In this document: positions 43,696-57,842 of the stretch, one piece after another
Numbering within the stretch: the first letter of the stretch is position 1
How the letters are laid out: each line of letters starts with the position of its first letter
From: Phycisphaerae bacterium
Lineage (GTDB): Bacteria > Planctomycetota > Phycisphaerae > Phycisphaerales > UBA1924
DNA: 64,000 nucleotides
Direction: 5' to 3'
NCBI GenBank assembly: GCA_030429705.1
Contig: JAUIES010000001.1
Coordinates: 248,001-312,000 of the forward strand
Translations under genes and position numbers: made by a program
Notes under the pieces: model-generated
Databases searched by the model: none
The model's input: only the letters and a program-made list of their open reading frames with translations
Told to the model about the DNA's origin: nothing

Positions 43696-44592
43696 ATGTT
43701 GATGATCCTCTTGACCATTCTCTCCATCACAGCCGCCTGCCTGCTCGCGGGTACAGTGGTCCTCCATGCCCTCAAACGCATTGGACTTGGTTCGCTGGCA
43801 ACCTGGCTATGCCGGGCACCCGGGCTCGATCTCGTCATTCTGTATTTCACCGTGCTGCCGATGATCGCTGGCCCGATTGCCGCGGTTCGAATGTTTGATC
43901 CAGACGCGGCGGCTTCGATGGCAGCGGGAACGGCAACGGACGGTGCACGATCGATCTGGCTGGTGGCACTGCTCGGGCTCGTCGCTGCTGTGCTTGGTCA
44001 GATTTTAACTGTGATGCTGTGGACCGTCGGGCACGAACTGGCCAACCGCAAAGCCCTTCGCGGGCCGCGCATCGTACACCATCTCAACCGTTCGGTTGGC
44101 CGTGTTCGCAACCACACCGCCGTCTGGTGGACGGCTTGGGCCGTGCCGGTGTTCGCGATTATCCGCATTGCAGAGTATCTGGTGTATCCCCCCCTCGTCT
44201 GGCTCGTCCGGTTCCCACGCTATAACGACGGCGAATGGATCAATGTCAGTCGGCAGAAATTTGACGGGCTCGTGGGACACGACCTCATCTGGTGCCTCTA
44301 CTGCGACTGGATGACTGGCGTGTGGAGCCTCGGCTCTGAGATGCTTCGCAATGTCGAAAGTTTCTGGTGCCCCATCCGTTTCGACACCGAGAAGAAGTGC
44401 GCCAACTGCAAAGTTGACTTCCCCGATATCGACGGCGGCTGGGCACCCGCCGATGGCACGATGGACGATGTTGTCAATGCTCTCGAAAAGCACTACAAGC
44501 CGACCGGTTCCAATGCTTGGTTCGGTCACCCGGCCCGGTTGACCGTCGAAGGCAAAGAGCAAACTGGCAACACTTCAGACACCACGGATTGA
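43696..44592 (+). CDS. Membrane protein with two Cys pairs, unknown function
   Basis: Protein of 298 residues. Three or four membrane helices lie in the first 130 residues (LMILLTILSITAACLLAGTV, LDLVILYFTVLPMIAGPIAA, IWLVALLGLVAAVLGQILTV) and another in VWWTAWAVPVFAIIRIAEYL. The C-terminal half is soluble and has two Cys pairs, LIWCLYCDWMTGVW and KKCANCKVDFPDID, as if binding a metal or forming disulfides, with SFWCPIRF between. A His pair (IVHHLNRS) lies on the loop. ATG at 43696 or 43702 may be used. It lies 62 bases after the MscS gene. No family is recognised. Confidence 0.7.
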   Translation: MLMILLTILSITAACLLAGTVVLHALKRIGLGSLATWLCRAPGLDLVILYFTVLPMIAGPIAAVRMFDPDAAASMAAGTATDGARSIWLVALLGLVAAVLGQILTVMLWTVGHELANRKALRGPRIVHHLNRSVGRVRNHTAVWWTAWAVPVFAIIRIAEYLVYPPLVWLVRFPRYNDGEWINVSRQKFDGLVGHDLIWCLYCDWMTGVWSLGSEMLRNVESFWCPIRFDTEKKCANCKVDFPDIDGGWAPADGTMDDVVNALEKHYKPTGSNAWFGHPARLTVEGKEQTGNTSDTTD

Positions 44593-44593
44593 A

Positions 44594-45001
44594 CTACCGA
44601 CCGCACCAGGCCGCGGGGACGGCACCGTGCTCTGCCCGGATGACGCTGCGGATCCCGCCACGCCCACGCCAATCTGTCCGGACCTGCAACCAGGTCGGAT
44701 TCATCAGTGCTACCAGATCGTCGCGTATGCGATTGGTGACGGCTTCGTAGAAGATGCCCTCGCTGCGGAAACTCTGGTAGTACAACTTGAGGCTTTTCAG
44801 TTCGACACAGGTGCCACCGTCATCAGCACCGCGCGGCTCAAATCGCACGGTCATCTCGCCAAAGTCAGGATGCCCGGTCTTGGGGCACACACTTGTGAAT
44901 TCTTCGTTGATGTGCTCAACGATGAAGGGTTCATTGGTCGGCGATGGGAAGGCTTCGAGAAGATTCGGATCGGGCATGGTGGTGTTGCTCAAGAGGGCCA
45001 T
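44594..45001 (-). CDS. queF: NADPH-dependent 7-cyano-7-deazaguanine reductase
   Basis: Queuosine pathway enzyme of 135 residues that reduces preQ0 to preQ1. The active-site Cys and Asp lie in FTSVCPKTGHPDFGEM and the substrate-binding Glu in CVELKSLKLYYQSFRSEGIF, which also holds the QueF motif. The tail has RTDWRGRGGIRSVIR. The short unimodular (YkvM-type) form fits. ATG at 45001 is chosen; TTG at 45040, overlapping the AIM24 gene stop, and ATG at 44977 are alternatives. No other queuosine genes are in the window. Confidence 0.93.
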   Translation of the reverse strand: MALLSNTTMPDPNLLEAFPSPTNEPFIVEHINEEFTSVCPKTGHPDFGEMTVRFEPRGADDGGTCVELKSLKLYYQSFRSEGIFYEAVTNRIRDDLVALMNPTWLQVRTDWRGRGGIRSVIRAEHGAVPAAWCGR

Positions 45002-45036
45002 GGACGCATGAAAAACTGCCCACGAGCCTATGCCGC

Positions 45037-45834
45037 TCAACTGCCATCGACGAGATCAAAGACGCCGCCGAGGATCGATCCCTCGCCGACGCGCTTGCCA
45101 CCTGAACGCGGGGCCGACGCAACCACGCGGTTGGCAAGACGGCTGAACGGCAGTGTTTGCAGCCAGACGGTACCCGGACCTTCGAGGGTTGCAAAGAAGA
45201 ACCCTTCGCCACCAAACAACTTGTTCTTGATCCCCTTGACCATCTCGATGCGATAGTCGACCTGTTTTTCAAACGCGACGATGCAGCCGGTATCGACACG
45301 CAGTTTTTCACCCGGTCCGAGATCACGCCTGATGACCGTTCCGCCCGCATGAAAGAACGCCTGACCCATGCCTTCGGGTGCGTGCAGACGCTGCAAGATA
45401 AACCCTTCGCCGCCGAACAGACCCGCGCCGAATCGTTTGGTGAATGCAACACCGATTTCAATGCCATGGGCGGCGCACAGGAACGAGTCCTTCTGGACGA
45501 GCAACTCGCCGCCAAAGTCGCCGAGTTCGACCGGAATGACATGCCCGGGATATGGTGCTGCAAATGCACAGTCGCTTCGTTGATTGCCTTCATTGGCGAA
45601 CACCGTGATGAAGAACGATTCGCCGGTGACGACGCGTTTGCCGGCTTCAAAGAGTTTGCCCATCAGGCCGCCCGCGTCTTTCTTCATCGAAAGTTGCGTG
45701 GCCATCTCGATGCCGTTCTCGAGATACATCATGACCCCGGCTTCACCGACGACGGCTTCGCCAGGGTCGAGTGTCACGATGACCGCCTGTAAATCGTCGC
45801 CGACAATCTGATAATCGATAATGTCCGCACCCAT
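45037..45834 (-). CDS. AIM24/TIGR00266-family protein
   Basis: Beta-rich protein of 265 residues with the family pattern: DYQIVGDDLQAVIVTLDPGE, VVGEAGVMMYLENGIEMATQ, LMGKLFEAGKRVVTGESFFI, then FGAGLFGGEGFILQRL and KNKLFGGEGFFFATLEGPG. The paired FGGEGF motifs are typical. The function of the bacterial members is unknown; the yeast relative acts in mitochondrial membranes. AAGGGGG precedes the ATG at 45834. It is upstream of queF with at most a short gap. Confidence 0.9.
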   Translation of the reverse strand: MGADIIDYQIVGDDLQAVIVTLDPGEAVVGEAGVMMYLENGIEMATQLSMKKDAGGLMGKLFEAGKRVVTGESFFITVFANEGNQRSDCAFAAPYPGHVIPVELGDFGGELLVQKDSFLCAAHGIEIGVAFTKRFGAGLFGGEGFILQRLHAPEGMGQAFFHAGGTVIRRDLGPGEKLRVDTGCIVAFEKQVDYRIEMVKGIKNKLFGGEGFFFATLEGPGTVWLQTLPFSRLANRVVASAPRSGGKRVGEGSILGGVFDLVDGS

Positions 45835-45915
45835 GGTCAACCCCCTTCTTCGGTCTTCAATATCAATGCACCTTCAATCGTACTCGAAAGAAGCCGCCGC
45901 GTACCATTCTTTCCG

Positions 45916-46293
45916 ATGTTCACACGGCCACTTGCAGTCCTGATACTTTTTTTTGGAAGCGCCCTGGTCGGTTGTGGCCGCCAAACGCCCGAGCCAATCG
46001 CACAAACACGGGCACCCGATCTCGCTCGCGGGGGTCGGTTGTTTGCCAGTATCTGCGCACAGTGTCATGGCGCAGCGGGCGAGGGCGTCAAAGACCGCGG
46101 GTTGCCGCTGCCCACCAGTGTGTTCGTCAACTCGAATACAAATAGATCAATAGTCGAGATGATCAAGGTCGGCAGGCCCCCCACCGCGGATCGCCCCGCG
46201 ATGCCTCCCAAGGGCGGCCGTCTCGATCTGACCGATGATGAACTCCATGACATCGTCGCCTTTTTGCGCACGATTCCGGTGGGTGATGATTGA
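45916..46293 (+). CDS. Small c-type cytochrome lipoprotein
   Basis: Predicted lipoprotein of 125 residues: MFTRPLAVLILFFGSALVGC with the lipobox Cys at 20, then a mono-heme cytochrome c domain with CAQCH at about residues 47-51 and GRLFASI before it. The distal Met ligand is probably in RPAMPPKGGRLDLTDDEL. It would carry electrons outside the membrane, and its heme would be attached by the ResB/CcsA pair in this window. The ATG lacks an obvious Shine-Dalgarno. Confidence 0.88.
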   Translation: MFTRPLAVLILFFGSALVGCGRQTPEPIAQTRAPDLARGGRLFASICAQCHGAAGEGVKDRGLPLPTSVFVNSNTNRSIVEMIKVGRPPTADRPAMPPKGGRLDLTDDELHDIVAFLRTIPVGDD

Positions 46294-46307
46294 TCGCGCT
46301 GAGCCGA

Positions 46308-47795
46308 TTACTGCCCTTGCGCGAGCGAATACCCCGGCTCACCGTCGAAGTATTTGAGCGGCTGGAAGTCAGTCACATCAAACTTCTCGGCAATTCGGCT
46401 GAGCAGAGCAATCGTCGGCGCAATCCCGAGTTGCCCGATCTTGTGCTTGTCTTTTAACTCAAATCGAACGCGGTAGTAGTCAACGATCTCGGTATACACC
46501 GACCCGCTCGGCCAGACCTGCGTCCCGCGGTTTGAGATCAGCGTCAGTTTGAACGGGGTGTCATGCGCAAGCCGCTGGAGCCGATCGGCAAGTTCGAGCG
46601 GCGCAATGCAAGTGTCGAGGTACAAGTCCGCCCCCACCACATGGCTCACGACATTTTCAAAGGTGCGCATGAGCGTGTTGACAACCGGACGCGTTGGCGC
46701 TGTGTGCACGGGTGTGTCCGCTTGAGGAACCGGCTTTGCTTCAAACTTCTCAGGCCCGCTGCCGAGACGGTCGATGATGCCCTGCGCGAAGTCGGCTGTC
46801 CCCACGGGTTCTTTCCCGCCCGCTGCAACATCCGCTGTATGGACACCATCTTCGAGCGCCGCCAACAGTGCATTTTCAATAATGGCCGCTTGCTTGCGCA
46901 TACCGATGTGCCGCAGCATGAGCAAACCAGACAAGAGCAGGCTCGTCGGATTGGCAACACCCTTGCCCGCGATGTCAGGAGCCGTGCCGTGGACCGCTTC
47001 AAAGATACTGATATGGTCGCCAATGTTCGCACTCGGCGCAAAACCCAACCCGCCGACCAAGCCGGCCGCGAGATCGGACACGATGTCGCCTTGCAGGTTG
47101 GGCAACACGATCATCTGATACACCTGTGGCCGAAGCACGAGATTCATGCAGAGTGCGTCGATAATCACATCGGCGGTCTGCACATCAGGGAAATCTTTGG
47201 CAACCTCACGGAAGCGATTGAGGAACAGGCCATCGGTCATCTTCATGATGTTGGCCTTGTGTCCGCAGTGCACGAGGTCGATGCCCAAGGCTTCTGCAGT
47301 CCGGAATGCAAACCGGTGCACCTGATCGGAGCCCGGCGCAGAGATCAGTCTTTTGCATTCGATGACATCGTTGGTCAGCCGATGCTCGATCCCGCCGTAG
47401 GTGTCTTCGATGTTCTCGCGGACGACGAAGAAGTCGACCGGGACACCCGCTCGTGAGTAGACCGTCTCGACCCCGGGCAGTGAGCGAAACTGCCGCAGGT
47501 TGGCGAACGCACCGAAGGTTTTGCGGAGGGTGACATTGATGGACTTGCCGCCGCCACCGATGGGTGTCCCCATCGGTCCTTTGTAGAGCAATCCACAGGC
47601 CTCGACCTCGGCGCTTGCTTCATCGGTCACGCCGCGCGAATCGCCCGCAGCAAACACGCGTTCACCCATGTCGACAGGGACGAAATCGAGCATATCGGTG
47701 ATGCCAGCAGCGTTAAACACGCTCATACAGGCATCCATGATCTCCGGACCGATGCCATCACCGGGAGCGAGCGCGATACGAACAGGGTCAGACAT
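46308..47795 (-). CDS. icd: Isocitrate dehydrogenase, Thermus-type with C-terminal domain
   Basis: TCA-cycle enzyme of 495 residues. The catalytic domain has IALAPGDGIGPEIMDA, KSINVTLRKTFGAFANLRQF, VRENIEDTYGGIEHRL (with the conserved Tyr), CGHKANIMKMTDGLF and SANIGDHISIFEAVHGTAPD. After about residue 370 there is an additional domain of 125 residues with FKLTLISNRGTQVWPSGSVY, IVDYYRVRFEL and KYFDGEPGYSLAQGQ, as in the Thermus thermophilus NADP-dependent enzyme, and longer than E. coli Icd. GGAGTC precedes the ATG at 47795. Coenzyme preference cannot be fixed from sight. Confidence 0.93.
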   Translation of the reverse strand: MSDPVRIALAPGDGIGPEIMDACMSVFNAAGITDMLDFVPVDMGERVFAAGDSRGVTDEASAEVEACGLLYKGPMGTPIGGGGKSINVTLRKTFGAFANLRQFRSLPGVETVYSRAGVPVDFFVVRENIEDTYGGIEHRLTNDVIECKRLISAPGSDQVHRFAFRTAEALGIDLVHCGHKANIMKMTDGLFLNRFREVAKDFPDVQTADVIIDALCMNLVLRPQVYQMIVLPNLQGDIVSDLAAGLVGGLGFAPSANIGDHISIFEAVHGTAPDIAGKGVANPTSLLLSGLLMLRHIGMRKQAAIIENALLAALEDGVHTADVAAGGKEPVGTADFAQGIIDRLGSGPEKFEAKPVPQADTPVHTAPTRPVVNTLMRTFENVVSHVVGADLYLDTCIAPLELADRLQRLAHDTPFKLTLISNRGTQVWPSGSVYTEIVDYYRVRFELKDKHKIGQLGIAPTIALLSRIAEKFDVTDFQPLKYFDGEPGYSLAQGQ

Positions 47796-47938
47796 GAACA
47801 CGACTCCAAAAAAGGTCATTTGAGCGGGGAGAGAATCATAGCGCAGCCCGCCGGTTTTGTTGTCGTCGGCCACATGTTGATTCTGAGTCAAATTCTGGCC
47901 GTCCGAGACCCCGAAACCCTCAATGCCCGGTTTCAAGG

Positions 47939-47966
47939 TTGCTCGACACGCGAATTCAGATATCCT
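47939..47966 (+). promoter_or_regulatory. Possible promoter for the dockerin gene at 48002
   Basis: TTGCTC (47939-47944) and TATCCT (47961-47966) are 16 bases apart, 36 bases before the ATG. The -35 and spacer equal those at 61574-61601 before another secreted-protein gene. Confidence 0.35.
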
Positions 47967-48001
47967 GCAGCAATCCCGTAAACGAAAGGAGCACCGCAGA
48001 C

Positions 48002-48982
48002 ATGCCATCAACGCGCACGAGTGTCGAGATTCCTCGCACCGCTTCCAGCAGTCGTCGTTGCGTGCTTGCGATGGTCGTCTCTGTACTTGCGTCATCCACC
48101 TCAGCCGATGTTTCGGCGAACGGATTCTGCCAGATCGTGGGAGACTTTGCGGTCTCCAAGGGGGTCTTGTTTGAGCAGGTTGCTGATAACACGCCGCCCG
48201 CGTCGGCTGATCACTACTTCTTCGATGCCTTTATCGAGACCTTTCCCGGTGCGGTTGCCGAGGCTTCGGTGTCGGTCGACGGGCACGAGGTCGGGCTGTT
48301 CGGTGACGGCACCGGTTTCTGGGAGACCGACGGCCCGAATGAAGACTTTGCCACGCAGGCTGGCCTCGATGCACTCTTTCCGAGCAACAGTCTGTACACC
48401 TTTGACATCAGCCGCGGCTCGCTGGGCGAACGCACGCAGGATATCACGCTCGGTAGCGACGATTACCCCGCCCCCCCGTACCTGGTGGGGACGAGTTTCA
48501 GTGACCTAAGCGGCATGAACGCCGATCAGGATCGCTCGATCGACTGGACAGCGACCACCGCCGATCGTGTGTTTGTTGAGTTTGAAGAGGTCGATTCGGA
48601 AATCGAACGCCTCGTGATCGAAGTCGACCCATCGCAAACCACACTGACCATACCGGCGGGGACGCTTGAGGGCGGGTTGGAGCATCGTTTGACGCTGTCG
48701 TTCATCAATGGCGACGAGATCCTCGGCAGCAACTGCCCGGGCTTTGAACTTGGCTCGGTCGGCACGGCTGCGTTCGTCAGTTCGACCAGTGTTTCATTCA
48801 CCACCGCTCCGCCGTGTTTGGTTGATTTCAACAGCGACGGCGTACTGAACTTCTTTGATGCGCAGATTTTCCTTGGTTACTTCGCCGCTCAGAACCCGCT
48901 CGCCGACCTAGTGAACGATGGCATTTTCGACTTCTTTGATGTGCAAGCATTTTTGAGCGCGTTTGCAGCCGGTTGTCCATAA
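48002..48982 (+). CDS. Secreted protein with GC-type dockerin tail
   Basis: Exported protein of 326 residues. A long signal peptide (basic MPSTRTSVEIPRTASSSRR, then CVLAMVVSVLASSTSADVSA) leads to a beta-rich domain of about 230 residues with PASADHYFFDAFIETFPGAV, LFGDGTGFWETDGPNEDFAT and TIPAGTLEGGLEHRLTLSF. The tail of 55 residues repeats the dockerin-like pattern CLVDFNSDGVLNFFDAQIFL and GIFDFFDVQAFLSAFAAGC, ending in CP. AAAGGAG precedes the ATG. The body is not recognised. It is the third protein with this tail in the window. Confidence 0.85.
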   Translation: MPSTRTSVEIPRTASSSRRCVLAMVVSVLASSTSADVSANGFCQIVGDFAVSKGVLFEQVADNTPPASADHYFFDAFIETFPGAVAEASVSVDGHEVGLFGDGTGFWETDGPNEDFATQAGLDALFPSNSLYTFDISRGSLGERTQDITLGSDDYPAPPYLVGTSFSDLSGMNADQDRSIDWTATTADRVFVEFEEVDSEIERLVIEVDPSQTTLTIPAGTLEGGLEHRLTLSFINGDEILGSNCPGFELGSVGTAAFVSSTSVSFTTAPPCLVDFNSDGVLNFFDAQIFLGYFAAQNPLADLVNDGIFDFFDVQAFLSAFAAGCP

Positions 48983-48987
48983 TCGCC

Positions 48988-49839
48988 ATGCCTTCTGTTG
49001 TCGACACAGACTTGTTTTTTCCGGCGGAGTTTGCCCGCCGGTATGAACCCGAAATGGCCCGCATGCTGGCGGCCGCTGCGGACGCGAGCGAGCCGATCAT
49101 GGGCGGGGCCATGGCGCGCGGCCACCCCGGCACATGGTGCAACCTCGCGACGGGAATCGGGCTCAATGGCCCGGTCGACGAGGCCGACATTGATCGGCTG
49201 GTCTCGTTTTATGTTGAAGCAGGTATCGAACCGCGTGTCGAAATCTGCGCGACGGTCGACCCATCGCTCGTGCGTGGGCTCACCGACCGGGGCTTTGTCG
49301 TGCGCGGGTGGGAGCATGTGTTCGCTAGCTCGCTGCGTGGCCGCCCTCTCACACCGCCGCACGACGCTATCGATGGGCTCACGATCGAAACGGTCGATAC
49401 GACAGATGAAACCGCGGTTCGTGAAGCCGTCACGCTGATGGTCAACCAGTTCTATCCCGAGCCAGGAGACGAGCCGCTACAGGAGGGCATTGAGACCACC
49501 GTCCGGTTCACGATGCGTGAAGGCGTGCATTTCTTTGTGGTTCGCAAAGATGGTGCGTTTGTCGGCTCGGGGGGGTTTGAGTGCTCGGGCCCATTTGCCA
49601 ACATCGTTGGAGCGGCCGTTGTGCCTGCGCTACGCGGGCGCGGCATTCAGCAGCACCTGATCGCCCACCGTTGCAACGCAGCCGCTCGACTTGGGGCCGA
49701 GGTCGCGGTGGTCAGTTCCAAGCCAGGCATCTCGACTGAACGCAATGCGCTGCGGATGGGTTTTGTGCTCGCGTACAGCCGGACGATCATGGCCATGCCT
49801 GGCGAGGGGCTGGCGCCCGAACACAGGGGTTCGTCCTGA
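48988..49839 (+). CDS. GNAT-family N-acetyltransferase
   Basis: Protein of 283 residues. Two alpha/beta halves are present. The C-terminal half has the acetyl-CoA-binding GNAT core: FFVVRKDGAFVGSGGFEC, ANIVGAAVVPALRGRGIQQH (motif A, RGRG) and AVVSSKPGISTERNALRMGF. The N-terminal half (FARRYEPEMARMLAAAADAS and EAGIEPRVEICATVDPSLVR) is the degenerate copy seen in double GNAT proteins. ATG at 48988 is chosen, 5 bases after the dockerin gene; an in-frame TTG at 48973 lies inside it. The substrate is unknown. Confidence 0.8.
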   Translation: MPSVVDTDLFFPAEFARRYEPEMARMLAAAADASEPIMGGAMARGHPGTWCNLATGIGLNGPVDEADIDRLVSFYVEAGIEPRVEICATVDPSLVRGLTDRGFVVRGWEHVFASSLRGRPLTPPHDAIDGLTIETVDTTDETAVREAVTLMVNQFYPEPGDEPLQEGIETTVRFTMREGVHFFVVRKDGAFVGSGGFECSGPFANIVGAAVVPALRGRGIQQHLIAHRCNAAARLGAEVAVVSSKPGISTERNALRMGFVLAYSRTIMAMPGEGLAPEHRGSS

Positions 49840-49989
49840 TCGAACAGCCAACGAGCCCGATGCGCCAGCGAGGGGAGCGGTACGCGGAGAGCGCGAAGAG
49901 CGCAGAGGACACGGAGGTTGTTTTTGATGGTGAGGGCATCGTGTGACTGACCCGTCTTCAGGTCAAAGCAAACACGCGTGCCGCCTCCC

Positions 49990-50015
49990 CCACTGACCCG
50001 AAGACGGGTCAGTGG
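49990..50015. repeat. Perfect 11-bp stem hairpin
   Basis: CCACTGACCCG pairs with CGGGTCAGTGG around AAGA. There is no T-run, so it is not a normal terminator. The related partial copy GACTGACCCGTCTTCAGGTC lies 40 bases upstream (about 49945), suggesting a dispersed REP-like element. Confidence 0.7.
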
Positions 50016-50119
50016 CACGATCCGGCCTTTGGCGAGTGGTCTTGGCTTTGCAAGGTCCGTTTTTTGAAGGCATCATCGCCGTCTCGCCTGAACGAGGGAT
50101 AAAAGGCAAAAACGGAACG

Positions 50120-50308
50120 ATTCCATCGCGCGGTCGAAGCGTTCCATCGCGCGATGGAAGGTCTCGACCGCGCGATGGAAGAGCGCTACAGCGCGATGGA
50201 ACGGCTCCATCGCGCGATGGAGGGCCTCGATCGCGCGGTTCGAGGCTTCCGCCACGCGGTTGAAGGGCACAATCGAGCGGTTCGACGGCTCTCTGGAGCA
50301 GCCCGATG
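50120..50308. repeat. 21-bp tandem repeat, nine units, encoding heptads
   Basis: Nine contiguous 21-base units beginning at 50120, 50141, 50162, 50183, 50204, 50225, 50246, 50267 and 50288, the last one degenerate. The core is CCATCGCGCGATGGAA, itself nearly palindromic. In the plus frame starting at 50121 the units read as heptads such as FHRAMEG and LDRAMEE, to a TGA at 50309; that frame has a stop at 50100 and no ATG before unit 2. The minus strand reads FHRAVET, FHRAMER and similar from a TTG. Either it is a remnant of a coiled-coil gene or a non-coding satellite. Confidence 0.85.
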
Positions 50309-50450
50309 ATGCCAAATCGCCGCTTTTGGCCGCTCAGGGGTGTTGGAGATGTCAATCGTCTGGAGAACGGGCCGATGTCGTCGCCGCCGTCCCCCCCAGA
50401 GCAGGGCGGGCGCAATAACGGCCGATCATACTCGTTGGGTTGCGAACGAA

Positions 50451-50525
50451 GCACCGAAGTCCGAAGACGGACTTGCGGTGGCACGGGTCAAAGAACCGTT
50501 GCTCGTCAGTGCCACCCCGCCACGG
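50451..50525. repeat. Left copy of an inverted hairpin repeat flanking the AT-rich gene
   Basis: The first 34 bases (GCACCGAAGTCCGAAGACGG onwards, 50451-50484) are the reverse complement of 51716-51748 with one inserted base. Similarity continues more weakly to about 50525 (GTGCCACCCCGCC). It contains its own hairpin around AAGA. Confidence 0.8.
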
Positions 50526-50633
50526 GTCAAACAGCCGACCGATATGATGAGACTTCGGTGCCACCCCGCCGTATCGGCAGGTGTATGGACCCAGAGGTTG
50601 GTGGAGCATTGTTGAGCCATACATGAGAGTAAG

Positions 50634-51572
50634 ATGAAACGACTTACCTATATATTTCCTCGAGTTACATTGCAAAATGAACTTGATTTTCTCTCAAGCG
50701 TGAGTGAACTCGGCGCTATCGTTCATAAGAGGAATGTGTCACGCAATTTCGAGGCCACGAATCCTGCTAGTCAGCGAGAATGGATTAATTTTTGTCTCAT
50801 TGTGAACTCAGAGGCTGCCCCAGCAGTGGTTCAACTCATTAGACGATATGACCTATTTTTAACTTCAGGTGAACAGCTGTTCTATCGCGAAGAATGTGAG
50901 TTCACGAAAGACGAGTTAGATCAAGCAGAATTGCTGACCGCTACCGTTAATCGATCACCCTTAGATTTTCTTACGCCTACAGAGGGAATGATCTATGATT
51001 ATTCAATAAAGCCAAGCCTGGATAGTCCCGCACCGTGGTGTTGGCAAATTACGCCACGTCTCATGCGACTGAAAAATATCCCTCATGCCAGCATTGGAAT
51101 TCACTGCACAATTCCAATGGAAATTTTGGTACATCATCGCCTGCTCAATTCTGTTCACGGCTTGCGTTATAAATACATATCGCTTGGTCCGGTTTTCGCG
51201 TCGAACGCCCCATCTGAATGGCACCAGATCATGTCCAAACGTGTAATGCCCCCGTATCACACAGACACTACCGGAGTTTTAGGGCCGCGGTCGACAGAGC
51301 ACCCGCCCGATTCTTCACCGCCAAATGTTTATGACAATCCACATGTAGGGTACATGCCGATCTACAGCAGGGCTGATGTAGTCGGTCGGTTCGGCTCTAT
51401 TCCGGAGATGACATTTACACATGAGCTCTATGGATGTTGGGGTCCAGGTAATCTTGCGAACCAAGTCGCACCTCCCCAGCCTCGCCTCGTCGTCAGCCAA
51501 CAAACGCGACAAAATATCATTAATGCAGGTGTAAAGCGAATCCGGTATGTACCGGTTCGATTAGTTGAATAG
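50634..51572 (+). CDS. AT-rich gene of unknown function (possible immunity-like protein)
   Basis: Protein of 312 residues whose DNA is visibly richer in A+T than all neighbours, with codon choices such as AAT, TTT and ATA. It starts MKRLTYIFPRVTLQNELDFL, with GEQLFYREECEFTKDELDQA and LDFLTPTEGMIYDYSIKPS in the first half and a Pro-rich, polar middle; the end is QQTRQNIINAGVKRIRYVPV. It has no signal peptide or membrane helix. The C-terminus faintly recalls the end of Imm11/DUF1629-type and double-CxxCG proteins of myxobacteria and planctomycetes, but I do not claim membership. It is flanked by inverted copies of a hairpin repeat, suggesting recent acquisition. Confidence 0.7.
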   Translation: MKRLTYIFPRVTLQNELDFLSSVSELGAIVHKRNVSRNFEATNPASQREWINFCLIVNSEAAPAVVQLIRRYDLFLTSGEQLFYREECEFTKDELDQAELLTATVNRSPLDFLTPTEGMIYDYSIKPSLDSPAPWCWQITPRLMRLKNIPHASIGIHCTIPMEILVHHRLLNSVHGLRYKYISLGPVFASNAPSEWHQIMSKRVMPPYHTDTTGVLGPRSTEHPPDSSPPNVYDNPHVGYMPIYSRADVVGRFGSIPEMTFTHELYGCWGPGNLANQVAPPQPRLVVSQQTRQNIINAGVKRIRYVPVRLVE

Positions 51573-51680
51573 GCGGGTGGCATGGTCTTGGCTCTGCAAG
51601 GCCATGATCCAAGTCCCGAGACGGCGGGTGGCCCGGGAGAGTCTGGTCTGTGTGGCACGCACAGCGTGTCTTCGAGTTGT

Positions 51681-51748
51681 GCGTGGGCAGGGTGGCACCG
51701 ACGACCTGCGACTTCGTGCCACCGAAGTCCGTCTTCGGACTTCGGTGC
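51681..51748. repeat. Right copy of the inverted hairpin repeat
   Basis: CACCGAAGTCCG and CGGACTTCGGTG form a perfect 12-bp stem around TCTT (51720-51747). The outer part (GGTGGCACCGACGA from about 51691) matches the left copy in reverse complement. It stands 109-176 bases after the AT-rich gene. Confidence 0.8.
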
Positions 51749-51862
51749 TTCGCCCAGTACATTCAAATTGATCGGCGGGTTGGCACGGGAAATACCATCA
51801 GCCGCGATTCATCGATCTCGCCTCCCCGTCACCCGGAACCAGCGGACCAGAACAGGACGCAT

Positions 51863-52240
51863 TCACCCCCGCCACTTCTCAACCGCAACGCCATCCTTGA
51901 ATCGGATATTGACAGCATGGTCTTCGGTCTTGGACTTCTCGCCGGCAAAAATCAGAAACACATGCCCTTCGCCCTCGGTGACCTTGCGCCACTTCCATGA
52001 CCAGGTCTCGCTGCCATCGTCGTTCGTCACCGTCGAACTGGGCGGGCCGAGCAGCCGCTCGACATCGCTCGTCGTGCTGCGGTGGACATGCACCCTTGAA
52101 AGGTCGCCAAACTCGACGCGCGAGCCCGAGTACGACACTTCCTTGGACCGCGAGAACAGGCAGCCGCCCATCGTTAGCGGCATCGAAAGCAGAACAGCCG
52201 AGGTCAAGGCGAGGCTCGTGCAGCGAATGGACTTCTTCAT
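51863..52240 (-). CDS. BamE/SmpA-like outer-membrane lipoprotein
   Basis: Lipoprotein of 125 residues: MKKSIRCTSLALTSAVLLSM then LTMGGC (lipobox Cys at about 27), followed by a small alpha-beta domain typical of BamE/SmpA: VHRSTTSDVERLLGPPSSTV, ETWSWKWRKVTEGEGHVFLI and NIRFKDGVAVEKWRG. In proteobacteria such a protein helps the BAM complex; here only a similar fold can be claimed. GGAG precedes the ATG at 52240. The gene stands alone between the island and a divergent gene. Confidence 0.75.
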   Translation of the reverse strand: MKKSIRCTSLALTSAVLLSMPLTMGGCLFSRSKEVSYSGSRVEFGDLSRVHVHRSTTSDVERLLGPPSSTVTNDDGSETWSWKWRKVTEGEGHVFLIFAGEKSKTEDHAVNIRFKDGVAVEKWRG

Positions 52241-52469
52241 GAGGGGTTCTCCAATAGGGTCTGTGATGAAACGCGATGTCTGTGTACCGCCGTGTTGGGG
52301 CTTGACTGACGATGATTTCGCTCAATTAAGCCCGGACGACACATTGGTTGTGAAGATCTGCCAAAAACCCGCTGGCGACCTGTGACATCAGGGTGACACA
52401 CCGGTCGTGTCGATGATCGTATTCTATGGATATCTCGCGTTCGCAACATCTGACCAGGGAGGCCCGATC

Positions 52470-53087
52470 ATGACACGCCGCATCACGCTCGCCGTTGCCG
52501 TCGCCACCTTTGCCGTGCTCGCCGGCGCGATTGCCACCCGCCCTGTTGTGATCACCCAACCCGCTCAGGGGGCTGCTCTCGAACCGGGCCGCGCCTTGCT
52601 GGTTTTGACCGGGCACGACTCACAGGTGACCAAAGCCCAGTTTCGGCCCGCCGCCTCGCAGAAGGTCTTTGACGAACTGTGGCTCATGCACAAGGGTGAC
52701 AGCGTGACCAAAGCCGCCCAGGGGTGGCCGATGATCCCGCAGATAGACTTCAATGCCTGTTATGCGATCTTCATCTTTGGCGGCGACACCGCCAACACCA
52801 ATGGGTATCGCGTGCGCGATGTCATCACCGAGGCCGACGCGATCACCGTGCGTTACGAAACAGATTCATATCAGACCTCGTCGTTCAATGGCATCGACCA
52901 CGGCAACGCGGTTCGGCCTTGGGGGTTGATCCTGATCCCCGCACCCAAGGGTCGAACGGTCATCCTCGAACAGAATGTCCAAGGCATGCGCGACACCGAA
53001 CCCAAGTGGAAACAACGCGTCGCCTTTCCGGGGCGCATCGGCATCGGCCGAACCATTGGCGGCACCAGTCAACACGGAAGCCCGTGA
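52470..53087 (+). CDS. Exported protein of unknown function, PrcB-like domain possible
   Basis: Protein of 205 residues. The ATG at 52470 follows GGGAGG and starts a signal segment (MTRRITLAVAVATFAVLAGA). The soluble part contains KVFDELWLMHKGDSVTKAAQ, IDFNACYAIFIFGGDTANTN, GYRVRDVITEADAITVRYET and AVRPWGLILIPAPKGRTVIL. The order of an FNxCYAIFIFGG strand, a GYxVRDV strand and a final proline-led LILIP strand recalls the PrcB C-terminal domain seen in protease-associated proteins, but this is weak. It precedes a convergent metalloprotease-like gene. Confidence 0.7.
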   Translation: MTRRITLAVAVATFAVLAGAIATRPVVITQPAQGAALEPGRALLVLTGHDSQVTKAQFRPAASQKVFDELWLMHKGDSVTKAAQGWPMIPQIDFNACYAIFIFGGDTANTNGYRVRDVITEADAITVRYETDSYQTSSFNGIDHGNAVRPWGLILIPAPKGRTVILEQNVQGMRDTEPKWKQRVAFPGRIGIGRTIGGTSQHGSP

Positions 53088-53120
53088 CGAAAGGCGACTT
53101 GCTCTCGTGTTCCGGCTGTT

Positions 53121-54035
53121 TTAGTGACGGGCCAGCTGGCGCGCCATCAACCGCCATTGCCGGTCTAGTTCTTCAACACTGATCCCGAGAATACCGGGCA
53201 CACTGGACCGCGGCGTCGCCGGGAGCATCCCCCGAGCCGCCCGTGCGAGCGCGTCGGTCAGTGCCTGTGTGTGCTGCGGATCATCGAGCAACACGCCGAG
53301 CACCCACGCCCGCGCGTAGTAATCATCAATCGCTCGCCCGTTGTTGGTCAGTTCGGTCGGGTCTTGTCGCAGGTGCGACTCGAGCGAACCGAGTCGGTTA
53401 TCTTCAAGTATTTGGCGCAAGAGCCCACGGCGAGACGGATTGGCTGTCGCCCGAAACAACGGCCGATTCGTCCGCTCATCCCAGTACAGACCCTCCGCCT
53501 GACAGGCGAGCGCCTCTTCCAACCAGACGGGCAATCGGCTCTGCAGCGCCTGGTGCGAGAACGCGTGCCACGCCTCGTGCGCAGCAAGCCGGAGCGCATC
53601 CGGCCCGCCGATGTCGTAGATGAACGACACACCATCAATCGTGACCGCAGCCCGGCTGAGCCCCGAACCAAGTGGCAACCGCTGACCGGTGCGCTGACGG
53701 GCGTAGTCCTGCACCGCTCGCTGCCAATCTGACTCGGATCGAAGGGCGTACACCTCGATGGTGATCGCATCCCCCCCAATGACATGCTGGCCAAATGATT
53801 GCACTGATTCCTCCAACACGATCTTCAAACGATCGCGCAGCGGACCATCCGGCAGTGTTGTCGTCAGACGAACATGATCACTCGTGAAAGTTCGGCTATT
53901 GCGAACACGGACTGCGCCCGGTGTGGCTGAAGTCTGCGACTCGATCGACGCTCGTCGATCGCTGGGGACGGAAGACGACCCGGCGCACGCGCCGAGGAGC
54001 AGCATCATCGCGACGCATGCGTGCCGGTACTTCAC
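53121..54035 (-). CDS. HExxH-motif lipoprotein (peptidase MA-like/DUF1570-like)
   Basis: Predicted lipoprotein of 304 residues: MKYRHACVAMMLLLGAC with the lipobox Cys at about 17. The body carries LAAHEAWHAFSHQALQSRLP (HEAWH, an HExxH zinc motif) followed by VWLEEALACQAEGLY with a probable third ligand Glu, and TIDGVSFIYDIGGPDALR before it. This is the layout of gluzincin-like peptidases of the DUF1570/MA group common in planctomycetes. The start is GTG at 54035, overlapping the valS stop (GTGA), so translation may be coupled. Protease activity is inferred from motif alone. Confidence 0.8.
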   Translation of the reverse strand: MKYRHACVAMMLLLGACAGSSSVPSDRRASIESQTSATPGAVRVRNSRTFTSDHVRLTTTLPDGPLRDRLKIVLEESVQSFGQHVIGGDAITIEVYALRSESDWQRAVQDYARQRTGQRLPLGSGLSRAAVTIDGVSFIYDIGGPDALRLAAHEAWHAFSHQALQSRLPVWLEEALACQAEGLYWDERTNRPLFRATANPSRRGLLRQILEDNRLGSLESHLRQDPTELTNNGRAIDDYYARAWVLGVLLDDPQHTQALTDALARAARGMLPATPRSSVPGILGISVEELDRQWRLMARQLARH

Positions 54036-57000
54036 CCGAGATTCTCGATCGCTGCCAGAACAGCCGCAAGATCTGACTCAGCCGTTTCGAGCGTCTGACG
54101 GGTTTGTTCGACCAAGTGCGCCGGCGCCTTGTCGGTGTAACCAGGATTCGAAAGTCGACCCTTGAGCGCACCGATCGACTTGGTCAGTTCAGCCTGTTGC
54201 CGCTCCAGCCGCTCGCGTTCGGCGTCCTGATCGACCGCGTCGGCAAGACTACTCAATCGATACTCAACCGCATTGAAGGTAAACGCGACCGACCCTTCGT
54301 CAGGGGCTGACGAGGTCGCAGTCAACCCGGCAAGTGTTTCAACCAGCCCATCAGCCTCTGCAACCAGCGCGGTCAGGTCACCCGTCACATGCAGCGTGAT
54401 CGTTCGCTTTGGCTGCACCTGGTGCTGGGCCCGGACTTCGCGAATGGTCGAGACCAATTCGCGGACGCGCTCAAATTGAGTGACCGCCTCTGCATCTTGA
54501 AGCGACGCATCGACGATCGGCCAACCGGCGAGACACAGCGCGCTGCCTTGGCGTGGTGCCGAAAGTGAAAGGCCTTCGATATTCGCCGTCGAGATCACCC
54601 CCACCTGTTCGTAGATTGCTTCCGTGATAAACGGCGTGATCGGATGAAGCAGACGCAATATCGCATCAAGAACCGCCCGCAAGCACGCCTGCTGGGCCGG
54701 GTTTTCTCGCACAGTCGGCTTGATCGCCTCGAGATACCAATCGCAGAAATCGCGCCAGAGCAAGTCATACATCGTCTGGGCGTAACTACTGAACTGATAC
54801 GATGTCAGGGCGGTATCGACCGATGCAACCGCTTCAGCCAGACGCGAGAGCATCCAGCGGTCAACAAGCGGCAGATCATTCTGCGTGACCGGCGTGTCAC
54901 TTGCTACGGCACCTTCCAGATTGCTCATCGCAAACCGGGCCGCGTTCCAGAGTTTGTTGCAAAAGTTGCGGCCGCCGTCAAACTTGGGGCTCGTGTTCCG
55001 ACCGGTCGCTTCGTCCATCTCCACCGGCATGCGCACATCCTGCGTCTGGGTGGTCATCTGGACGAGTGTGAACCGCATGGCGTCGGTGCCGTGCGAATGG
55101 ATGATATCGAGTGGATCAACACCGTTACCGAGCGACTTGGACATCTTGCGCCCTTGCCCGTCCTGGATCATGGCGTGGATGAAGACATCGGCGAACGGGG
55201 GGGCCCCTGCGTTCTTAACATCTGCGTCGGCCGCATCGGCTCGGAGAGCCGATCTACCCAGGAAGAACCGATTGAACATCGCCATGCGACTGACCCAGAG
55301 CGTGATAATCTCACGCGCGGTACAGAGCACGCTTGTGGGATTGAACGCTGCGAGCAGCCCGGCGGTGTCCTGAAAACCCTGTGATTCGAGCCAGTGCTTG
55401 AGGTGGATGGTGCCGAACTTGGACGAGACAACCGGGTCTGCCGTGCGCACGCCGACGGCACAGATGAGGTCCTTGCATTTGGTGATTTGCTCCGGCTCGA
55501 CCAACGGCTGGGCGGCATCGCCGAGCGAATGCAGGCTTGACTCGCTGAAGAGTTGATAGGCGATTGCGGTCTTGCCGCTGTCCAGGAATGCCTTGTCGCG
55601 CAGGTGAAGCAGCCGATCGATCGTGTCGCCGGATGGCTCGCCCTCGGTGCCAATGAAGTCCTTCCATTTGCCGACTCGCTTGACGAAGATGGCGTATATC
55701 TCGTCGGGGTGCTTCGGGTCGATCTGCTTGGCGGAGATCAGGGGGAGAGTGTCATTGGGCCATCCCAGCGTGGACAGCGGCCAAAGAGCGGAACTGAACC
55801 AGGTGTCGAGGACATCGGGGTCTTGTGTGAACTCGACCAATCCATATTGCCAGTGATGCAATGATCGATTCCACAAATTATTCCAGAGTGTAGGAATGTC
55901 TGTTTCTTGATCGAGCCACGCTTCACTAGGGTTTGCTTGCTGAATCTGATCCGCGTTCTGTATCCAGTACTGGTAATAGAGCTGAATATATGTCGCAGCA
56001 CGCTCAGTCCGCGGGCAAATATAAACCTCGCCGGAATCAACATGTTGTAGGGTGTAATCGTCGGGACCAATTCCCGTATCGGCCAAAATGTCAAAGATAC
56101 CGCACTCCACAGTCTCTTCGATGTGCATTTGGTCAAATTGCTCCCGTGTCAGCGGGTACTCGGATGCCTGAGCAAGATAAGTCTTGTAGCAACACTCCAA
56201 ATCCCACTTAAGGTGCCACACTGGAATCTGATGCCCCCACCACAATTGTCGGCTGATGCACCAGTCGCGCAGGTTGTCGTGCCAGTTTTCGAAGGTCTTC
56301 GCGTAGCGCGGCGGGTGCATCGTGGTCGCACCGTCAGTCGTGTTGTTGCCCGGTGCACTCTCGGGCCACTTCTCCAAACTCTCTTTCGTCCGCTGCTCAA
56401 TCGGGAGCGATCGCTGTGCTTCTCCCCGTAAACGATCATCAGTCACCTTCACATACCATTGATCGCTCAGATAGGGCTCGACCGGCGCGTGGCTGCGGTA
56501 ACTGTGCCCGACGCTGTGCCGATAGGGGCGGACTTCTTCGAGCAGAGCCCGCGCTCCAAACTCGCGGACGACGAGTTCGCGTGCATCCTTGCCTGACTTG
56601 CCAAAGAACACATGCCCTTCTTCACCGCGTCCGGCTGGGTCCCAGCCATGATCAGGGCTGATAGAACCATCGGGCGCCATAATATTGATCGGTTCGAGCC
56701 CGTGCCGCAGGCCGATTTCCCAGTCATTCGGGTCGTGGGCCGGTGTCACCTTCAAAAACCCGGTTGCGAACGCTGCCTTGGGGTCCGGGGGGGTGTCGCC
56801 CTGACGGTCGGCTGCCTGCTCCTCGGTCTCCCACGGGTACCGCGCCGGCGGCACAACATAGTCATCTTCGACGATCGGGATGATCCGCCCCACGATCGGC
56901 AGTTGCACCATCAGGTCACGCAACGCAGCAGCCCGAGGGTCTCTCGGGTTGATGGCAACGCCGGTATCGCCGAGGTATGTTTCCGGCCGCGTCGTCGCGA

Positions 57001-57763
57001 CCGTCACCCATGCGGGTTCTTCTTCAGGATGTGTTTCAGCACTAGGATACCCGCGGGCTGCGAGTTCCCCCCACGACACTTCCTGCGCATCGAGTTTGTC
57101 GTCGGGGTTCTCCGGCTTGTGCACGAGCGGGTATCGCAGGAAGTAGAACGCCCCGTCAATCTCGATGTTCTCGACTTCATCGTCCGCCAGTGCTGTCTGG
57201 GTCACCGGGTCCCAGTTCACTAGTCGCTTGCCACGATAGATCAGCCCGGCTTTGAAGAGTTGAAAAAACGCTTCACGCACCGCGCGGGCGCACAGTGGAT
57301 CCATGGTGAAACGCTGACGATCCCAATCGCAGCTGCACCCCATGGCTTGCAACTGACCGGTGATCTGCTCTTCATACTCGTCCTTGAACGCCTGGATCTT
57401 CTCGACGAAGTCGGCCCGCTCGAAGTCGGTCCGGCGTTTGCCTTCATCCGCCATCACGCGCTTTTCGACCACGGTCTGCGTGGCGATGCCGGCGTGATCG
57501 GTCCCCGGCATCCACAGCGTTTCATACCCCTTCATGCGGTGGGCTCTGGCGAGCACATCCTGCAGGCTGTTGTTGAGAGCGTGCCCGAGGTGCAACGCGG
57601 CCGTCACATTTGGAGGCGGAATCAAGATGCAATAAGGTTCTGCTTCACCGGAAAGCACGCGCGCCGGATCGGCGTGGAATGCCCGCGAATCGACCCACTG
57701 CTTCCAGATGCGGGCTTCGTGTTCCTCCGGGCGGTAGGTCTTGCTCAATCCGTCGCTTGGCAT
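54032..57763 (-). CDS. valS: Valyl-tRNA synthetase with large insertions
   Basis: Class I synthetase of 1243 residues that charges tRNA-Val; most bacterial ValRS have about 880-950. The catalytic signatures are intact: PPPNVTAALHLGHALNNSLQ (HIGH type) at about residues 52-71 and GQGRKMSKSLGNGVDPLD (KMSKS). The editing domain carries WVTVATTRPETYLGDTGVAI. Two regions are expanded: about 521-645 between WHLKWDLECCYKTYL and QDPDVLDTWFSSALWPLSTL, and about 665-805 between STLGWPNDTLPL and NPTSVLCTAREIITLWVSRM. The C-terminal coiled coil (DAERERLERQQAELTKSIGA) is present. ATG at 57763 is chosen over a TTG at 57781. Confidence 0.95.
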   Translation of the reverse strand: MPSDGLSKTYRPEEHEARIWKQWVDSRAFHADPARVLSGEAEPYCILIPPPNVTAALHLGHALNNSLQDVLARAHRMKGYETLWMPGTDHAGIATQTVVEKRVMADEGKRRTDFERADFVEKIQAFKDEYEEQITGQLQAMGCSCDWDRQRFTMDPLCARAVREAFFQLFKAGLIYRGKRLVNWDPVTQTALADDEVENIEIDGAFYFLRYPLVHKPENPDDKLDAQEVSWGELAARGYPSAETHPEEEPAWVTVATTRPETYLGDTGVAINPRDPRAAALRDLMVQLPIVGRIIPIVEDDYVVPPARYPWETEEQAADRQGDTPPDPKAAFATGFLKVTPAHDPNDWEIGLRHGLEPINIMAPDGSISPDHGWDPAGRGEEGHVFFGKSGKDARELVVREFGARALLEEVRPYRHSVGHSYRSHAPVEPYLSDQWYVKVTDDRLRGEAQRSLPIEQRTKESLEKWPESAPGNNTTDGATTMHPPRYAKTFENWHDNLRDWCISRQLWWGHQIPVWHLKWDLECCYKTYLAQASEYPLTREQFDQMHIEETVECGIFDILADTGIGPDDYTLQHVDSGEVYICPRTERAATYIQLYYQYWIQNADQIQQANPSEAWLDQETDIPTLWNNLWNRSLHHWQYGLVEFTQDPDVLDTWFSSALWPLSTLGWPNDTLPLISAKQIDPKHPDEIYAIFVKRVGKWKDFIGTEGEPSGDTIDRLLHLRDKAFLDSGKTAIAYQLFSESSLHSLGDAAQPLVEPEQITKCKDLICAVGVRTADPVVSSKFGTIHLKHWLESQGFQDTAGLLAAFNPTSVLCTAREIITLWVSRMAMFNRFFLGRSALRADAADADVKNAGAPPFADVFIHAMIQDGQGRKMSKSLGNGVDPLDIIHSHGTDAMRFTLVQMTTQTQDVRMPVEMDEATGRNTSPKFDGGRNFCNKLWNAARFAMSNLEGAVASDTPVTQNDLPLVDRWMLSRLAEAVASVDTALTSYQFSSYAQTMYDLLWRDFCDWYLEAIKPTVRENPAQQACLRAVLDAILRLLHPITPFITEAIYEQVGVISTANIEGLSLSAPRQGSALCLAGWPIVDASLQDAEAVTQFERVRELVSTIREVRAQHQVQPKRTITLHVTGDLTALVAEADGLVETLAGLTATSSAPDEGSVAFTFNAVEYRLSSLADAVDQDAERERLERQQAELTKSIGALKGRLSNPGYTDKAPAHLVEQTRQTLETAESDLAAVLAAIENLG

Positions 57764-57842
57764 CTGTTGGCACTCTTTCAATCTGCGTTTCTATTGGCGG
57801 TTGGTGCTGGGTGCAGTCTACGCGACCCGATACAGTTCAGAG

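What the first reader, a model, noticed from the sequence alone, without database searches (positions are those of the whole stretch)
50451..51748. AT-rich orphan gene bracketed by inverted copies of a hairpin repeat
The gene at 50634-51572 differs in base composition and codon use from every neighbour. It lies between two copies of a hairpin element in opposite orientation (50451-50484 and 51716-51748, identical except for one inserted base, with weaker similarity extending further). Together this looks like a small mobile cassette or a gene that entered by recombination between dispersed repeats. No transposase or recombinase is present, so it could be a non-autonomous unit.
Basis: seen in the sequence. 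Interest (0 to 1): 0.62.

Follow-up and report, generated by a model that had tools for sequence, protein, structure and literature searches.

The report
Orphan immunity-like gene in repeat island
A foreign-looking gene, related to genes that sit beside bacterial warfare toxins, lies among short hairpin repeats that this genome's own small transposases probably spread; the repeats look like independent insertions rather than the ends of a cassette, yet foreign-looking genes do seem to gather at such repeats in this genome.

Summary
Observation confirmed: two hairpins, identical but for one base, flank in opposite orientation a 312-aa gene whose G+C (46.8%) and GC3 (42.8%) lie below all 41 other window genes of 150 aa or more. 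The hairpins are heads of a dispersed element nearly confined to this genome (10 sites; one similar palindrome in 1 of 60 other genomes). Copies bracket a REP-associated tyrosine transposase (RAYT) gene elsewhere; a second repeat family, one copy of which starts on the orphan's stop codon, brackets a second RAYT. The two copies here are of different subfamilies and face opposite to the RAYT1 pair, against a cassette. The protein's two convincing relatives each adjoin an RHS toxin-type gene: probably an orphan RHS immunity gene. AT-rich genes are enriched beside the repeats (7 of 52 against 2 of 585 control genes), the reverse of the 'REP deserts' described in Pseudomonas. Cause and order of arrival are not shown; none of 60 relatives is of the same genus, so no empty-site test was possible.

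The parts
50634..51572 (+). AT-rich orphan gene, 312 aa; candidate orphan RHS immunity protein
   Evidence: GC/GC3 outlier; homologues in G023 and G609 beside RHS-type genes; no Pfam, NCBIfam, PADLOC or PHROG hit
50447..50570 (+). family-1 REP-like element, extra-G subfamily: head hairpin 50452-50484, tail 50506-50521, second tail 50555-50570
51686..51752 (-). family-1 REP-like element, subfamily without the G (as at RAYT1): head 51716-51747, tail 51686-51701
51572..51606 (+). family-2 REP-like head (GTGG then CATGG hairpin), starting on the last base of the orphan's stop codon; its inverted second half is not recognisable here
   Evidence: 0 mismatches to the family-2 head; one of 18 sites in the genome; does not fold clearly better than shuffles (z -1.43)
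51621..51686 (+). copy of a further dispersed repeat, also at L027, L119 and, in part, L026
49938..50021 (.). inverted pair, copy of another dispersed palindromic repeat (also L021, L116, L119)
50034..50055 (+). possible relic of a family-2 head
   Evidence: direct repeats D2 and D4 with 51580-51601
50107..50279 (.). tandem array of 21-nt palindromic units; shared with L023 and, degenerate, L116

Best explanation
The locus is a repeat island: an intergenic stretch where RAYT-linked REP/REPIN-like elements of at least two families inserted independently, beside other repeats. The gene between them was acquired horizontally and is most likely an orphan immunity gene of an RHS polymorphic toxin: its protein would bind and neutralise a toxin delivered by a competitor, although the host carries no such toxin gene beside it. 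The hairpins are not cassette ends; they would be copied by the RAYT proteins as single-stranded DNA hairpins, and the copy at the stop codon may also act on the end of the transcript. Shown: the repeats, their families, the RAYT genes between copies, the gene's composition, and the RHS-type neighbours of both relatives. Inferred: movement by the RAYTs, horizontal origin, immunity function, any effect on the transcript.
For: Family-1 copies at C4:1844985 (-) and C4:1845717 (+) bracket RAYT1 (C4:1845064-1845663; NF047646 REP_Tyr_transpos E 1.8e-27, 96 bits, cut-off 80). Family-2 copies bracket RAYT2 (C8:265526-266095; NF047646 E 3.1e-26, 92 bits). Of the 18 family-2 sites, 11 have GTGG directly before the CATGG hairpin and 11 have a recognisable inverted second half (8 mismatches or fewer in 33; the window copy does not). 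Family 1: 10 head sites here, one palindrome in 1 of 60 other genomes. Left and right copies are of different subfamilies. The gene is a GC and GC3 outlier, present in 3 of 163 genomes of the family, own included (a fourth row, a 32-residue fragment with a stop at E 0.007, is set aside). G609 relative: profile E 4.4e-5, two-sequence BLASTP E 1e-13, 24% over 261 columns; it overlaps the end of an 1830-aa RHS-repeat gene (RHS_repeat E 3.3e-22, YD_repeat_2x E 7.7e-12). G023 relative (46%, E 1.2e-66): its end overlaps the start of an ORF with part of the RHS core (E 4.2e-7, 30.4 bits, below the 32.5 cut-off).
Against: No known immunity or defence family matches the gene or its two relatives. In G023 the RHS fragment is downstream of the gene, not upstream as in the usual toxin-immunity order (order recalled). 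Only two relatives are known, so the RHS link rests on two loci. The AlphaFold models are useless (mean pLDDT 33.0 and 31.7), so no fold test was made. REPs are usually more numerous (over 100 copies per genome, PMC2817692, abstract as listed), and family 1 lacks the canonical tag at the foot of its main hairpin. The enrichment of AT-rich genes beside the repeats means that independent arrival of gene and repeats may not be the whole story.
Confidence: 0.6

Rival explanations
1. Repeat islands are landing sites: foreign DNA enters by homologous recombination between dispersed REP-like copies, or at nicks made by the RAYTs, so AT-rich accessory genes come to lie between copies. The bracket is then a trace of how the gene arrived, without being a transposable cassette.
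For: Genes with GC under 0.50 are 7 of 52 beside 30 element clusters, against 2 of 585 in 38 control stretches (Fisher 5e-7; without this window 6 of 49, 4e-6). At 200 aa or more: 5 of 36 against 0 of 450 (without the window 4 of 34). 9 of 30 clusters have an AT-rich neighbour (2 of the 9 are this window's), against 2 of 71 control gaps of at least 250 bp. L023 shows a second AT-rich gene with a family-1 element facing in on one side, a family-2 element and a weak family-1 tail on the other, and a 21-nt array outside.
Against: Correlation only; relaxed intergenic sites would collect both repeats and foreign genes. 2 of 140 non-adjacent genes in the same stretches are also AT-rich. The left family-1 piece in L023 is only a 16-nt tail with 3 mismatches. 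The 0.50 cut-off was chosen, and controls were placed by hand outside the known element sites.
Confidence: 0.25
2. A true non-autonomous cassette: the two inverted family-1 hairpins are its ends, and the unit with the gene was moved by RAYT1.
For: RAYT1 itself lies between inverted copies of the same element. Three pairs of family-1 heads within 1.5 kb among 12 is rare under random placement (3 of 20,000 trials, genome treated as one line).
Against: The two ends are of different subfamilies; tails point inward here and outward at RAYT1; other repeats lie between the right hairpin and the gene; REPtrons are reported not to appear to transpose as a unit (PMC6006769, passage); the gene has a single match in the genome.
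Confidence: 0.1
3. The gene is an old resident that looks AT-rich because it evolves fast, and the repeats are unrelated insertions.
For: No same-genus genome was available to exclude it.
Against: Only 3 of 163 genomes of the family have the gene. The relatives are themselves lower in GC than their loci (0.537 against 0.659; 0.579 against 0.648), as in genes that move.
Confidence: 0.05

Closest known systems
REP/REPIN elements with RAYT (TnpA_REP); REPtrons
   Same: Dispersed palindromes, inverted halves within a unit (11 of 18 family-2 sites), two families each with copies on both sides of an NF047646 RAYT gene, clusters of several repeat families
   Different: About 10 to 18 sites per family at the limits used; family 1 has no GT[AG]G at the foot of its main hairpin
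TIRtrons: RAYT-like genes flanked by terminal inverted repeats (PMC3733652, passages)
   Same: Transposase gene between inverted repeats that belong to a modest dispersed family
   Different: The GGGGWSAS motif was not seen in the printed family-1 copies (by eye, no search); family 2 carries a GTGG tag
Orphan immunity genes of RHS and other polymorphic toxins
   Same: Relatives sit beside RHS-type genes; a rare, patchy, AT-rich lone gene
   Different: No match to a known immunity family; neutralisation untested; one of two relatives has an unusual gene order; here it lies in a repeat island

Membership tests
REP/REPIN with RAYT | Multi-copy dispersed palindrome, mainly outside genes | tested here: met
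   10 family-1 head sites and 18 family-2 sites; mostly between or at the ends of called ORFs (by inspection; a few overlap ORF ends or doubtful ORFs)
REP/REPIN with RAYT | A RAYT gene in the genome flanked by the repeats | tested here: met
   RAYT1 and RAYT2 match NF047646 above its cut-off, each between copies of one family
REP/REPIN with RAYT | GT[AG]G tag at the foot of the hairpin | tested here: inconclusive
   Family 2: GTGG in 11 of 18 sites. Family 1: GTGG only at the outer end of the tail, read on the other strand
REP/REPIN with RAYT | High copy number (usually over 100 per genome) | tested here: not met
   10 and 18 sites with up to 3 mismatches
REP/REPIN with RAYT | Cleavage or transposition by the RAYT | not testable with these tools
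   needs a protein and DNA assay
Mobile cassette with the two hairpins as ends | Matching ends in the orientation seen around the RAYT1 gene | tested here: not met
   different subfamilies; opposite facing to RAYT1
Mobile cassette with the two hairpins as ends | Empty site in a close relative | not testable with these tools
   none of the 60 relatives is of the same genus; of 16 other genomes with both flanking genes, 15 have them on different contigs and one 72 kb apart
RHS orphan immunity gene | Homologues next to polymorphic-toxin genes | tested here: met
   2 of 2 relatives adjoin RHS-type ORFs; the G023 core match is just below cut-off and the gene order there is unusual
RHS orphan immunity gene | No cognate toxin gene adjacent | tested here: inconclusive
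   No RHS-like ORF seen among translations of 44000-58000 by eye; neighbours were not scanned against families
RHS orphan immunity gene | Match to a known immunity family | tested here: not met
   0 families in Pfam and NCBIfam
RHS orphan immunity gene | Neutralises a toxin | not testable with these tools
   needs co-expression in a laboratory strain

The most novel reading that the evidence does not exclude
RAYT-linked REP islands serve this genome as gathering points for foreign immunity and defence-like genes: the repeats, or breaks made at them, give incoming AT-rich genes a neutral place to enter and be exchanged, the reverse of the 'REP desert' rule described in Pseudomonas.
Probability: 0.2. 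Interest if true: 0.7.

Novelty: new member of a known kind. Interest (0 to 1): 0.42.

Why it matters
[quoted passage not shown] If foreign genes really gather at RAYT-linked repeats in this lineage, domesticated transposases would have a part in gene acquisition, and the repeats would be a handle for finding unknown immunity and defence genes where no integrase marks the site. The gene itself adds a small, unnamed RHS-linked family.

Tried and rejected
Searches for relatives of the orphan in genome contigs, viral contigs and plasmids found none, and neither did PDB sequences (one search gave one row, 4wkw_A at E 0.17, dismissed). Two AlphaFold jobs gave mean pLDDT 33.0 and 31.7, so no fold search was run. 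Synteny of the flanking genes as an empty-site test failed: of 16 other genomes with both genes, 15 have them on different contigs and one 72 kb apart (many assemblies are fragmented). The idea that all AT-rich genes at the repeats are immunity genes was dropped: they include an nSTAND3/PDC-S73 protein, a PDC-S60-like protein and an ORF that looks to me like a lipoprotein (the last by eye). The reading that the paired hairpins define one unit was dropped after the subfamily comparison. Two of the seven AT-rich adjacent ORFs are about 100 aa and may be spurious, hence the test restricted to 200 aa or more.

Literature: three searches bear on a link between REP repeats and gene acquisition or defence: 40 papers with two of three terms, 12 listed, not all gone through; 0 papers; 1 paper, PMC3390384, which reports the opposite in Pseudomonas. 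That I know of no report of the association rests on these only.

Full report
Check of the observation. The left head, 50452-50484 (+), and the right head, 51716-51747 (-), match the two head forms with no mismatch and differ by one inserted G. Inverted arms of 28 nt at 100% run 50447-50474 / 51725-51752, and similarity continues at 81% over 75 columns. The 14-mer core is found 7 times in the 3,486,007-base genome and the reversed control 0 times. Folded as DNA, the two window copies have z -2.97 and -3.39, and a RAYT1 flank -4.99. The gene at 50634-51572 has GC 0.468 and GC3 0.428; 41 other called genes of at least 150 aa in the window have means of 0.583 and 0.670 and minima of 0.524 and 0.547 (my own simple gene caller).

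What the repeats are. Family 1 has the form: hairpin head CACCGAAGTCC-loop-GGACTTCGGTG, then GCACGG, a spacer of variable length, then a tail TCGGTGCCACCCCGCC. A whole-genome search with up to 3 mismatches gives 10 distinct head sites here and one similar palindrome in 1 of 60 other genomes. Two of the copies, C4:1844985 (-) and C4:1845717 (+), bracket a gene (C4:1845064-1845663) that matches NF047646, REP-associated tyrosine transposase, at E 1.8e-27, 96 bits against a cut-off of 80. Its printed protein holds an HVH motif (the meaning of the motif is recalled). Family 2, with the head TGGCATGGTCTTGGCTCTGCAAGGCCATG, has 18 sites with up to 3 mismatches. Copies bracket a second RAYT, C8:265526-266095, NF047646 at E 3.1e-26, 92 bits. 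In 11 of 18 family-2 sites GTGG stands directly before the CATGG hairpin, as the GT[AG]G tag does in canonical REPs (PMC6006769, one section and passages read). In 11 of 18 an inverted second half is recognisable with 8 mismatches or fewer in 33, the form of a REPIN. The window's family-2 copy starts on the last base of the orphan's stop codon, has no recognisable second half and does not fold clearly better than shuffles (z -1.43).

Why not a cassette. Of 12 family-1 heads found in the fetched element stretches, the extra G is in 4: the left window copy, L021, L025 and L121. The right window copy and both RAYT1 flanks lack it. So the two ends here are of different subfamilies, whereas those of the RAYT1 pair match. 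In the window the tails face the gene; at RAYT1 they face outward. Other repeats lie in the same flanks: an inverted pair at 49938-50021, a repeat at 51621-51686, a second family-1 tail at 50555-50570 and a 21-nt array at 50107-50279. [quoted passage not shown] An empty-site test was not possible: none of the 60 relatives is of the same genus. The flanking genes are found in 27 of 41 and 23 of 41 genomes of the family (own included), but of 16 other genomes with both, 15 have them on different contigs and one 72 kb apart. In favour of a cassette, family-1 heads do cluster: 3 pairs within 1.5 kb among 12, seen in 3 of 20,000 random placements.

What the gene is. Pfam, NCBIfam, PADLOC and PHROGs give no match for the orphan protein. 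Relatives: 2 of 61 genomes, 2 of 392 of the phylum sample, 3 of 400 of the order sample and 4 of 163 of the family, own genome included each time; the fourth row is a 32-residue fragment with a stop at E 0.007 and is set aside. The end of the G023 relative (46%, E 1.2e-66) overlaps the start of an ORF with part of the RHS core at E 4.2e-7, 30.4 bits, just below the cut-off of 32.5. The G609 relative (profile E 4.4e-5; two-sequence BLASTP E 1e-13, 24% over 261 columns) overlaps the end of an 1830-aa RHS-repeat gene by 4 bases from its second ATG or 34 from its first (RHS_repeat E 3.3e-22, YD_repeat_2x E 7.7e-12, RHS core only 16.6 bits). That is the usual place of an immunity gene (recalled). 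Both relatives are lower in GC than their loci: 0.537 against 0.659 and 0.579 against 0.648. I therefore read the window gene as an orphan RHS immunity gene. Orphan immunity genes are a known kind (PMC5361080 and PMC10539506, abstracts as listed). Against this: the order of genes in G023 is not the usual one, only two relatives are known, no family model or usable fold supports it, and no function was tested.

An unexpected pattern. Going through the known sites of both families, AT-rich genes kept turning up beside them; the cut-off of GC 0.50 was set after that. With one gene caller for all stretches, 30 element clusters have 52 adjacent genes, of which 7 have GC under 0.50; so do 2 of 140 non-adjacent genes in the same stretches (Fisher 0.0017) and 1 of 261 genes in 18 control stretches (Fisher 1.7e-5). 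With 38 control stretches (760 kb) it is 2 of 585 (Fisher 5e-7; without the window 6 of 49, 4e-6). Compared with control gaps of at least 250 bp, 9 of 30 clusters, 2 of them in this window, against 2 of 71 gaps (Fisher 2e-4). At 200 aa or more, 5 of 36 adjacent genes against 0 of 450 control genes, and 4 of 34 without the window. Controls were placed by hand at round positions outside the stretches already fetched, so they are free of the known family-1 and family-2 sites by construction. Of 14 adjacent genes scanned against PADLOC, 4 match at E 0.001: a 619-aa nSTAND3 protein (PDC-S73 E 1.9e-90; PF20720 E 9e-48) and a 312-aa PDC-S60-like protein (E 1.3e-29, part of the profile), both AT-rich; an Mrr-type nuclease with GC 0.53 (PDC-S02 E 3.5e-44; PF04471 E 5.8e-28); and a HEAT-ARM match in L025 (E 1.5e-10, GC 0.58). 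No control genes were scanned against PADLOC, so an enrichment of defence genes is not shown.

A second locus, C7:213366-214418 (L023), looks partly alike: a 350-aa ORF with GC 0.44, a family-1 element facing in on one side, a family-2 element and a weak family-1 tail (3 mismatches) on the other, and a 21-nt array outside, with partly matching DNA on both sides of the array. The array is found in none of the 38 control stretches and, degenerate, at one more element locus, L116; BLAST of the flanks of both loci (E 1e-3) hits only element loci. So several repeat families gather at the same islands.

How this compares with print. In the P. [quoted passage not shown] Here it looks the other way round. 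Three literature searches touch on a link of REP repeats with gene acquisition or defence and showed me no report of it. RAYT-like genes flanked by modest families of inverted repeats have been described as TIRtrons (PMC3733652, passages). Each piece is thus of a known kind; the association is what is worth following.

Verdict. Observation confirmed; cassette reading not supported, recombination reading open. Most likely: an orphan RHS immunity gene, acquired horizontally, in an island of independently inserted RAYT-linked REP-like repeats.

Noticed in passing
window 50107-50279; L023 3806-3994; L116 4374-4574: A tandem array of 21-nt palindromic units outside REP-like elements at three loci and in none of 38 control stretches; in some frames it reads as a seven-residue peptide repeat.
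   Followed up: partly
L020 3583-8461 (C4:1843582-1848460): RAYT1 and its two family-1 elements lie between an RHS gene (core E 1.6e-11) with its AT-rich neighbour and an ORF that is RHS-like by eye (YD repeat only at E 0.1) and starts inside a family-1 element, as if the unit had landed in an RHS locus.
   Followed up: partly
L023 4367-5419 (C7:213366-214418): A 350-aa AT-rich ORF (GC 0.44) without a convincing family match, in a layout partly like that of the finding.
   Followed up: partly
L021 3608-5467; L118 4341-5279; L119 3803-4648: Candidate defence genes beside the repeats: nSTAND3/PDC-S73, PDC-S60-like and Mrr-type nuclease.
   Followed up: partly
L132 6497-7159 (G609): A second small gene right after the orphan's relative and the RHS gene, with CxxC motifs by eye and no convincing family match; perhaps another immunity gene.
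   Followed up: no
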